Assembly: GCA_947625495.1 (NCBI GenBank)
Contig: CANQOQ010000012.1
Coordinates: forward strand, 1-49,481
Source: Candidatus Gastranaerophilales bacterium
Lineage (GTDB): Bacteria > Cyanobacteriota > Vampirovibrionia > Gastranaerophilales > Gastranaerophilaceae
Length of the DNA stretch: 49,481 nucleotides
Direction: 5' to 3'
Positions within the stretch are counted from its first letter, which is position 1. Each line of letters starts with the position of its first letter. The position numbers were made by a program, and so were the translations under genes. Below are positions 7,522 to 49,481 of the stretch, one piece after another. The notes beneath the pieces were generated by a model. The model was not told where the DNA came from, made no database searches, and saw nothing but the letters and a program-made list of their open reading frames with translations.

Positions 7522-7594
7522 AGCGGAAGACGGGACTCGGACCCGCGACATTCTGCTTGGAAGGCAGATGCTCTACCAACTGAGCTACTTCCGC
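7522..7594 (-). tRNA. tRNA-Gly(TCC)
   Basis: The acceptor stem GCGGAAG pairs with CTTCCGC, the anticodon loop is CTTCCAA and the discriminator is U. CCA is not encoded. It lies 11 bases upstream of tRNA-Cys in the same direction. This species is the one missing from the tRNA cluster upstream of tuf at the other end of the window. Confidence 0.95.
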
Positions 7595-48938: not shown

Positions 48939-49004
48939 GAGTTTAAACTCCTTTTTCTGTAATTTATTCTACTTATATCCTATGTTTTATTTTAGGTATT
49001 TAAT

Positions 49005-49076
49005 AGCCCTTGACGGGACTTGAACCCGTGGCCTCTCCCTTACCAAGGGAGTGCGCTACCACTGCGCCACAAGGGC
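49005..49076 (-). tRNA. tRNA-Thr(GGT)
   Basis: The acceptor stem GCCCTTG pairs with CAAGGGC, the anticodon loop is TTGGTAA, the T loop TTCAAGT and the discriminator U. CCA is not encoded. It lies just upstream of tuf. Its 5' end is repeated in the array that precedes it. Confidence 0.95.
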
Positions 49077-49293
49077 TCATTTATTTTCGAGCCTGTTGCC
49101 GCTTACTCCCTACGGGAGTGCTTCCTCTCCTCAAAAGATACACTGTATCTTTTTCGTCGGCAGAGTCACTGCGCCACAAGGGCTCATTTATTTTCGAGCC
49201 TGTTGTGCTTCCCCGCTCGGCAGAGTCTTCCTCTCAGAAAACAATACTTAATTGTTTTCTTCGGCAGAGTGCCACAAGGGCTCATTTTAAAAA
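49060..49293. repeat. Hairpin-bearing repeat array with copies of the tRNA-Thr(GGT) 5' end
   Basis: A 39-base sequence at 49060-49098 recurs exactly at 49167-49205, 107 bases apart. It contains the first 17 bases of tRNA-Thr(GGT) plus downstream sequence; a shorter copy of 17 bases lies at 49271-49287. The 10-base tcggcagagt occurs three times (49157, 49217, 49261). Two 9-bp hairpins (49133-49153 and 49237-49259) and one 6-bp hairpin (49105-49119) lie between copies. It sits between tRNA-Tyr and tRNA-Thr(GGT). Confidence 0.75.
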
Positions 49294-49376
49294 TGGGCAG
49301 AGGTGGATTCGAACCACCGTAGACTCGCGTCAACAGATTTACAGTCTGTCGCCTTTAGCCACTCGGCCATCTACCC
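49294..49376 (-). tRNA. tRNA-Tyr(GTA)
   Basis: The acceptor stem GGGTAGA pairs with TCTGCCC (one G-T pair). The long variable arm of a type II tRNA and the anticodon loop ACTGTAAAT (GTA) are visible, and the T loop is TTCGAAT with discriminator A. The length is 83 bases. CCA is not encoded. Confidence 0.95.
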
Positions 49377-49409
49377 ATGTATTGAATTGTTAATGTGCAA
49401 TCTATAAAC

Positions 49410-49481
49410 AGCCGGTGATAGGAATCGAACCTACAACCTACGGTTTACAAAACCGTTGCTCTACCGTTGAGCTACACCGGC
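49410..49481 (-). tRNA. tRNA-Thr(TGT)
   Basis: The gene reaches the last base of the window. The acceptor stem GCCGGTG pairs with CACCGGC, the anticodon loop is TTTGTAA (TGT), the T loop TTCGATT and the discriminator U. It is the first visible tRNA of the tRNA-tuf run. Confidence 0.93.

What the first reader, a model, noticed from the sequence alone, without database searches (positions are those of the whole stretch)
49060..49293. Repeat array occupies the place of tRNA-Gly in the Thr-Tyr-Gly-Thr-tuf operon
Seen: transcription order is tRNA-Thr(TGT), tRNA-Tyr(GTA), a 215-base array, tRNA-Thr(GGT), tuf. The array has two full and one partial copy of the tRNA-Thr(GGT) 5' end, three tcggcagagt copies and three hairpins. 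tRNA-Gly(TCC) is found instead at 7522-7594. Known: in E. coli the order is thrU-tyrU-glyT-thrT-tufB. Inference: a small hairpin element may have entered the tRNA 5' region repeatedly, duplicating it each time, after or during loss of glyT; the hairpins could also steer tRNA processing.
Basis: partly seen in the sequence, partly recalled or inferred. Interest (0 to 1): 0.6.

Follow-up and report, generated by a model that had tools for sequence, protein, structure and literature searches.

The report
Hairpin inserts nested in tRNA fragments
The array is one site of a previously undescribed family of tiny hairpin inserts that, throughout one family of gut bacteria, sit inside partial copies of tRNA and 5S rRNA genes, replace five bases of the copied gene in a fixed way and leave an intact gene beside them.

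Summary
The 215-nt array between tRNA-Tyr and tRNA-Thr(GGT) is not a replaced tRNA-Gly: nine relatives with no array run Tyr to Thr(GGT) directly, and none of 12 loci examined has tRNA-Gly there. It is two units of a family confined, as far as searched, to Candidatus Gastranaerophilales (135 of 146 genomes of the family; chance-level hits in eight other families of the class). Each unit is a truncated copy of the gene's end carrying a conserved ~42-nt hairpin, A-CTCTGCCGA-stem-loop-stem-GAGAG-GTA. The stem covaries strongly. The hairpin replaces a five-base GNANN word (14 of 14 target types; background 0.10), confirmed by dispersed repeats found with and without it. The own genome has 12 copies at seven tRNA genes; relatives add 5S rRNA and dispersed repeats. 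The intact gene end lies 3' of the hairpin in 108 cases and only 5' in 1. Sites are occupied or empty between close species, so the hairpins spread. Most likely they are non-autonomous mobile palindromes; the partial duplications, often with a short inverted copy, look like replication template-switching, with selection keeping the intact gene. The own genome has no detectable Y1 transposase or reverse transcriptase. What moves them is unknown.

The parts
49004..49077 (-). intact tRNA-Thr(GGT), 3' of the array in transcription order
   Evidence: ARAGORN and Rfam RF00005
49271..49283 (-). unit 1: truncated copy of the tRNA-Thr 5' end (GAGCCCTTGTGGC)
   Evidence: read; repeat D1
49228..49270 (-). 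unit 1: hairpin core 1, ACTCTGCCGA-AGAAAACAAT-TAAGT-ATTGTTTTCT-GAGAGGAA, in place of GCAGT
49209..49226 (-). unit 1: second, decayed core (ACTCTGCCGAGCGGGGAA), one G away, in place of GTAGC
   Evidence: sequence; third ACTCTGCCGA
49186..49208 (-). unit 1: remaining tRNA-like 3' part with acceptor-complementary AGGCTC and an AT-rich linker
   Evidence: fold
49167..49185 (-). unit 2: copy of the tRNA-Thr 5' end (GAGCCCTTGTGGCGCAGTG)
49122..49166 (-). unit 2: hairpin core 3, ACTCTGCCGACGAAAAAGATACAGTGTATCTTTTGAGGAGAGGAA, in place of GTAGC
49101..49121 (-). unit 2: small hairpin GCACTCCC-GTA-GGGAGT made of tRNA-Thr anticodon-stem sequence
49078..49100 (-). unit 2: acceptor-complementary CAACAGGCTC and AT-rich linker up to the intact gene
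49293..49377 (-). tRNA-Tyr, 5' flank of the array; it directly precedes tRNA-Thr(GGT) in relatives that lack the array

Best explanation
The array is two units of a family-specific hairpin insert nested in partial copies of an RNA gene. The conserved ~42-nt hairpin core is a non-autonomous mobile palindrome that lands on a GNANN word and replaces those five bases. It persists in tRNA and 5S genes only where a partial duplication of the gene's end has left an intact copy next to it; the duplicates often carry a short inverted copy (duplication-inversion-duplication), as expected from polymerase template-switching at natural palindromes such as tRNA arms. Tandem arrays then grow by repeated events or slippage. 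Shown: the family, its distribution, the stem covariation, the five-base replacement, the directionality, the duplications and the occupied/empty polymorphism. Inferred: that the core spreads by a copying process, that template-switching makes the duplications, and the order of events. The enzyme is unknown.
For: Core pattern in 38/41 genomes of the genus and 135/146 of the family, up to 86 copies per genome, reversed control 0; outside the family only chance-level hits. Named carriers are nearly all Candidatus Gastranaerophilales MAGs. Of 224 distinct copies, 139 lie within 700 nt upstream of a tRNA gene of many types; others at 5S rRNA and in dispersed repeats. Five-base replacement tabulated over 43 contexts, the modal form (5 nt out, core ending GAGAG-GTA) in 22; first base G and third base A in 14 of 14 target types, background 0.10. 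With/without pairs: GAAGT-GACCC 9 without and 10 with core; GTATT site 7 and 5. The 12 bases before the core recur 3' of it in 108 cases and only 5' of it in 1. Occupied versus empty sites: tRNA-Thr in G000 against G020, initiator-type Met 4 occupied among 26 loci with decayed remnants in others. Inverted piece: 58 of 102 units have an inverted match of 7 nt or more; mean 7.6 against 4.9 shuffled. Stem: covariation score 0.518 against 0.151 shuffled, 10 of 13 pairs with two-sided changes.
Against: No enzyme was identified. The own genome has no Y1 transposase and no reverse transcriptase match, and no viral, phage or plasmid record carries the array or an element-like core. The core is retained by almost every genome of the family, which could also mean a useful function. 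About 44 of 102 units show no clear inverted piece, so fold-back is not universal. The contexts are a search-defined sample: cores with altered conserved ends were missed, and the 5-mer table was partly curated by hand.
Confidence: 0.6

Rival explanations
1. The units are functional RNAs: a tRNA-like pseudo-gene with a kink-turn-like hairpin that steers processing or expression of the neighbouring tRNA operon.
For: Stem covariation, invariant CTCTGCCGA and GAGAGG with tandem G-A/A-G pairs replacing Watson-Crick pairs at stem positions 2-3, retention in most genomes of the family, position inside a tRNA-tuf operon.
Against: Occupancy differs between close species at the same gene; copies decay in place; copies lie antisense beyond the 3' ends of Arg, Phe, Met and 5S genes; many copies sit in dispersed repeats.
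Confidence: 0.15
2. Site-specific recombination: the units are minute integrative cassettes (integron attC-like or integrase att-like) that use the tRNA fragment as attachment site.
For: Tandem units, direct repeats of the gene end, fixed polarity toward the intact gene, hairpin structure.
Against: The tRNA fragment differs at every target and matches the local gene; only the hairpin is constant. Integron core sites GTTRRRY and RYYYAAC occur in 5 and 8 of 257 copies, both together in 1. The five-base replacement is not explained.
Confidence: 0.12
3. Transposition by a Y1 (HUH) transposase, as for REP/RAYT repeats, or by a reverse transcriptase primed at the target.
For: Hairpin with fixed flanks and a GGTAG tail; strand polarity; snap-back copies are typical of reverse transcriptases (general knowledge).
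Against: Y1_Tnp is absent from the own genome and from G139 and G174, which have 38 and 41 copies; RVT_1 is absent from the own genome, G136 (86 copies), G111 and G174.
Confidence: 0.1
4. The array replaced tRNA-Gly of an ancestral Thr-Tyr-Gly-Thr-tuf operon.
Against: Nine array-free loci in six genera have Tyr directly before Thr(GGT); no locus has Gly there.
Confidence: 0.01

Closest known systems
Rickettsia palindromic elements (RPE)
   Same: Family-specific bacterial palindromic repeats, structured, no mobilising enzyme named, some inside RNA genes (tmRNA and RNase P RNA; review PMC2229807).
   Different: RPEs are 105-146 bp and sit inside the functional gene, often in frame in protein genes. 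Here the hairpin is ~42 nt, replaces a five-base word, and sits in a truncated duplicate next to an intact tRNA or 5S gene, often in tandem.
Yeast mitochondrial GC clusters (GC42)
   Same: A 42-nt palindrome with variable copy number that merges and shuffles with other small palindromes; copy mechanism unknown (PMC4478555).
   Different: Mitochondrial, mostly intergenic, flanked by AG/ACT direct repeats; no five-base replacement and no RNA-gene end duplication reported in the passages read.
Repetitive hairpin-forming elements of sponge and fungal mitochondria
   Same: Small hairpins dispersed without known enzyme; lack of flanking duplications noted for Allomyces (PMC2800124).
   Different: Not tied to tRNA gene ends; organellar.
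REP/RAYT and other bacterial MITE-like repeats
   Same: Short hairpins present in many copies.
   Different: No Y1 transposase in the own genome or in several copy-rich relatives; no simple terminal repeats with target duplication.
Quasipalindrome template-switch mutation
   Same: Short inverted copies made at natural palindromes by polymerase template-switching (PMC7202029, PMC7954356; abstracts only).
   Different: Would explain the duplication and inversion but not the conserved hairpin core.

Membership tests
Small mobile bacterial palindromic repeats in the broad sense (RPE-like) | Multicopy dispersed repeat with conserved palindromic secondary structure | tested here: met
   1-86 copies per genome; stem covariation
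Small mobile bacterial palindromic repeats in the broad sense (RPE-like) | Presence/absence at orthologous sites | tested here: met
   tRNA-Thr site empty in G020, filled in G000, G030, G016; Met site; with/without pairs in dispersed repeats
Small mobile bacterial palindromic repeats in the broad sense (RPE-like) | Non-coding and non-autonomous | tested here: met
   Core ~42 nt, too short for a gene; no enclosing transposase in the copies read
REP/RAYT (Y1 transposase driven) | Resident Y1 (HUH) transposase | tested here: not met
   PF01797 absent in G000, G139, G174, G141
Retroelement (reverse transcriptase driven) | Resident reverse transcriptase | tested here: not met
   PF00078 absent in G000, G136, G111, G174
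Integron cassette attC | GTTRRRY and RYYYAAC core sites at the ends | tested here: not met
   both in 1 of 257 copies
Classical DNA transposon / MITE | Short constant target-site duplication | tested here: not met
   Five bases replaced instead; duplicated gene end varies from a few nt to 60
Kink-turn RNA | Two helices joined by a 3-nt bulge followed by tandem sheared G-A pairs | tested here: inconclusive
   CUC-UGCC-GA...GA-GAG fits with a 4-nt loop; tandem GA pairs recur inside the stem; no structure determined
Any curated RNA family | Rfam match | tested here: not met
   No match to the core or units

The most novel reading that the evidence does not exclude
A mobility system that recognises RNA genes as such: a hairpin that inserts at a GNANN word in RNA genes or RNA-like hairpins, in DNA or through an RNA step, and whose insertion itself copies the gene end so that the gene survives, without any of the enzyme classes tested here.
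Probability: 0.2. Interest if true: 0.88.

Novelty: new variant of a known kind. Interest (0 to 1): 0.7.

Why it matters
tRNA genes are common targets of large mobile elements; here units of about 100 nt occupy both ends of many tRNA genes and leave them intact. The five-base replacement, fixed polarity and occupied/empty sites in close species make a mechanism testable in a family of uncultured gut cyanobacterial relatives where it is nearly universal. No match was found in Rfam, and the literature searches run here returned no account of it.

Tried and rejected
tRNA-Gly replacement: rejected by relatives. Chance repeat: rejected by the reversed-pattern control. Known RNA family: no Rfam hit. 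Phage or plasmid origin: no match; the single viral-contig hit of the longer pattern has no recognisable stem and no tRNA nearby and I take it as chance. Five exact ACTCTGCCGA words in the own genome lie away from tRNAs and lack the rest of the core; I treat them as chance. Y1 transposase or reverse transcriptase as obligatory resident driver: not supported. Integron attC: not supported. Origin of the dispersed repeats from tRNA-Leu: an 11-nt exact match at the 5' end in one type, but local alignment is not better than shuffles (22 against a 95% level of 23), so only a weak lead.

Full report
What is in the window. The window is the whole of contig C12 of a 1.88-Mb genome in 51 contigs. On the minus strand the order is tRNA-Thr(TGT), tRNA-Tyr, a 215-nt array, tRNA-Thr(GGT), tuf. 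The array holds two units. Unit 2, next to the gene, reads: copy of the tRNA-Thr 5' end to GCGCAGTG, then ACTCTGCCGA-stem-loop-stem-GAGAGGAA, then GCACTCCC-GTA-GGGAGT, a piece complementary to the acceptor strand (CAACAGGCTC), an AT-rich linker, and the intact gene. Unit 1 is the same but truncated earlier (GTGGC) and carries a second, decayed hairpin one base after the first. This explains the three TCGGCAGAGT words. The array with tRNA-Thr folds better than all 200 shuffles, z = -5.9.

It is a genome-wide family. ACTCTGCCGA occurs 17 times in the own genome; 12 are at the ends of seven tRNA genes: Pro(GGG), Pro(TGG), elongator-type Met, initiator-type Met, Thr(GGT), Leu(GAG), and antisense beyond the 3' end of Arg(ACG). 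The core pattern CTCTGCCGA-N12..40-GAGAGG occurs in 38 of 41 genomes of the genus and 135 of 146 of the family, with 1 to 86 copies where present, and never in reversed order. In eight other families of the class, hits stay at the level of the reversed control. Named genomes with it are nearly all Candidatus Gastranaerophilales. Of 224 distinct copies read, 139 lie within 700 nt upstream, in the hairpin's orientation, of a tRNA gene (Val, Pro, Lys, Thr, Met, Ala, Leu in sense; Arg, Phe, Met in antisense at the 3' end); others sit at the 3' end of 5S rRNA (recognised from its antisense sequence; Rfam was not run on those loci) or in dispersed repeats of a few hundred nt.

The hairpin is conserved as a structure. 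In 36 distinct cores of equal length, ten stem pairs change on both sides; the covariation score is 0.518 against 0.151 in shuffles and at most 0.154 in slid versions. The flanks CTCTGCCGA and GAGAGG are invariant because the search demanded them. At stem positions 2-3, G-A followed by A-G often replaces Watson-Crick pairs together, a pattern typical of tandem sheared GA pairs; with the CUC/GAG helix and the UGCC bulge this resembles a kink-turn. That reading is inference.

The insertion rule. Comparing each truncated copy with the intact gene beside it shows that the hairpin replaces five bases. In 43 distinct contexts the commonest outcome (22) is five bases out and a core ending GAGAG-GTA. 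The words lost are GTAGC, GCAGC, GCAGT, GGAGC, GGAGT, GGATT, GGAAC, GAAAT, GGAAT, GTATG, GTAGA, and in dispersed repeats GAAGT and GTATT. All have G first and A third: 14 of 14 target types, where the background in the outer parts of tRNA genes is 0.10. The dispersed repeats give direct with/without pairs: TTTTACG-GAAGT-GACCC in 9 copies against TTTTACG-core-GACCC in 10, and GAGTGGC-GTATT-AGACAGC in 7 against 5 with the core (sequences).

Duplication and polarity. The 12 bases before the core recur 3' of it in 108 cases and only 5' of it in one. So the truncated copy is on the 5' side of the hairpin and the intact gene on its 3' side, whichever end of the gene is involved. Exact direct repeats ending at the insertion point vary from a few nt to 60. 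In 58 of 102 units the stretch between core and gene contains an inverted match of 7 nt or more to the gene's end, mean 7.6 against 4.9 in shuffles. Clear cases are initiator-type Met in the own genome, AGTCTGG-GAA-CCAGACTGCTCC, and Val in L063, where GCAGTTG-core-GTAGC faces CGCGCTAC-A-CAACTGC. The inverted arm carries the complement of the intact five-base word, so the palindrome was copied from a gene without the hairpin. The order gene end, inverted piece, gene end is what polymerase template-switching at a natural palindrome gives.

Sites come and go. The tuf locus of G020 (95% identical) has tRNA-Tyr and tRNA-Thr 10 nt apart and no array; G030 and G016 have arrays with different hairpins. 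At the initiator-type Met gene 4 of 26 loci in the genus have a core, and others keep decayed remnants such as GCAGAATACTCTGTTGAAAAAAG.

What drives it. Y1 transposase (PF01797) is absent from the own genome and from G139 and G174; reverse transcriptase (PF00078) is absent from the own genome, G136, G111 and G174, and most of these are rich in copies. Draft genomes can miss genes, but neither enzyme is generally required to be resident. Integron core sites are absent. No phage or plasmid record matches. I therefore favour a non-autonomous hairpin spread by an unidentified enzyme or by host replication and repair, and I mark that step as unknown.

A second layer. Nine of 42 tRNA genes in the own genome have their 3' end repeated downstream, most with trailer and terminator; in eight of them the insert is an unrelated module of 100-150 nt. 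Lys(TTT), Leu(CAG), Ser(CGA) and Arg(CCT) share one module; Asp and Gly(GCC) share another. They follow the same plan: intact tRNA, inverted T-arm piece, truncated copy with a module in the T-loop. The core hairpin is thus one of several small modules that colonise partial tRNA copies in these genomes.

Comparison with the known. The nearest relatives in kind are Rickettsia palindromic elements (PMC2229807), yeast mitochondrial GC clusters (PMC4478555) and hairpin elements of sponge mitochondria (PMC2800124). The five-base replacement, the restriction to RNA-gene copies and small repeats, and the gene-sparing duplication are not described in the passages I read. I file it as a new variant of small mobile palindromic repeats.

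Noticed in passing
L226, L255, L256, L254 (own genome, tRNA Lys-TTT, Leu-CAG, Ser-CGA, Arg-CCT): The tRNA 3' end plus trailer is repeated 100-150 nt downstream around a shared module GATGAGAAC-hairpin-GTTCGAGCG...TTCGGCACGAAATGCCG...CAAGACA inserted in the T-loop of the outer copy.
   Followed up: partly
L234, L239 (own genome, tRNA Asp-GTC, Gly-GCC): A second, different module (GAGCGA...GCCTGTATCCGAAGCAAAGCGGAGGTGT) in the same arrangement at the tRNA 3' end.
   Followed up: partly
L111, L138, L098 and others: Dispersed ~210-460-nt repeat TCTGAGTGGGACCTCGC...GTCAGTTGACTATATGAAA, with several hairpin modules present or absent at fixed places; no Rfam match in the copies scanned.
   Followed up: partly
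L259-L278 (G087): Another dispersed repeat TGTCCGAGAAAGACTCGCG...GGAGAACTGCTTTATT, many copies in one genome, with and without the core at GTATT.
   Followed up: partly
L275, L277 (G087): A core lies about 80 nt upstream of an ATG that opens a pilin-like reading frame, and the repeated sequence around it occurs at two loci.
   Followed up: no
L019 and L086: The core at tRNA-Leu(GAG) has a further ~110-nt insert inside its stem (TGCTTTAGTCGTAGTTGAG...CAGCTGA); the start of the same insert is seen at a tRNA-Pro unit in L086.
   Followed up: no
49410-49481 and G000:C10:66543-66614: tRNA-Thr(TGT) with the same Rfam score at the ends of contigs C12 and C10; the two contigs may adjoin, with the assembly broken at this gene.
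   Followed up: no
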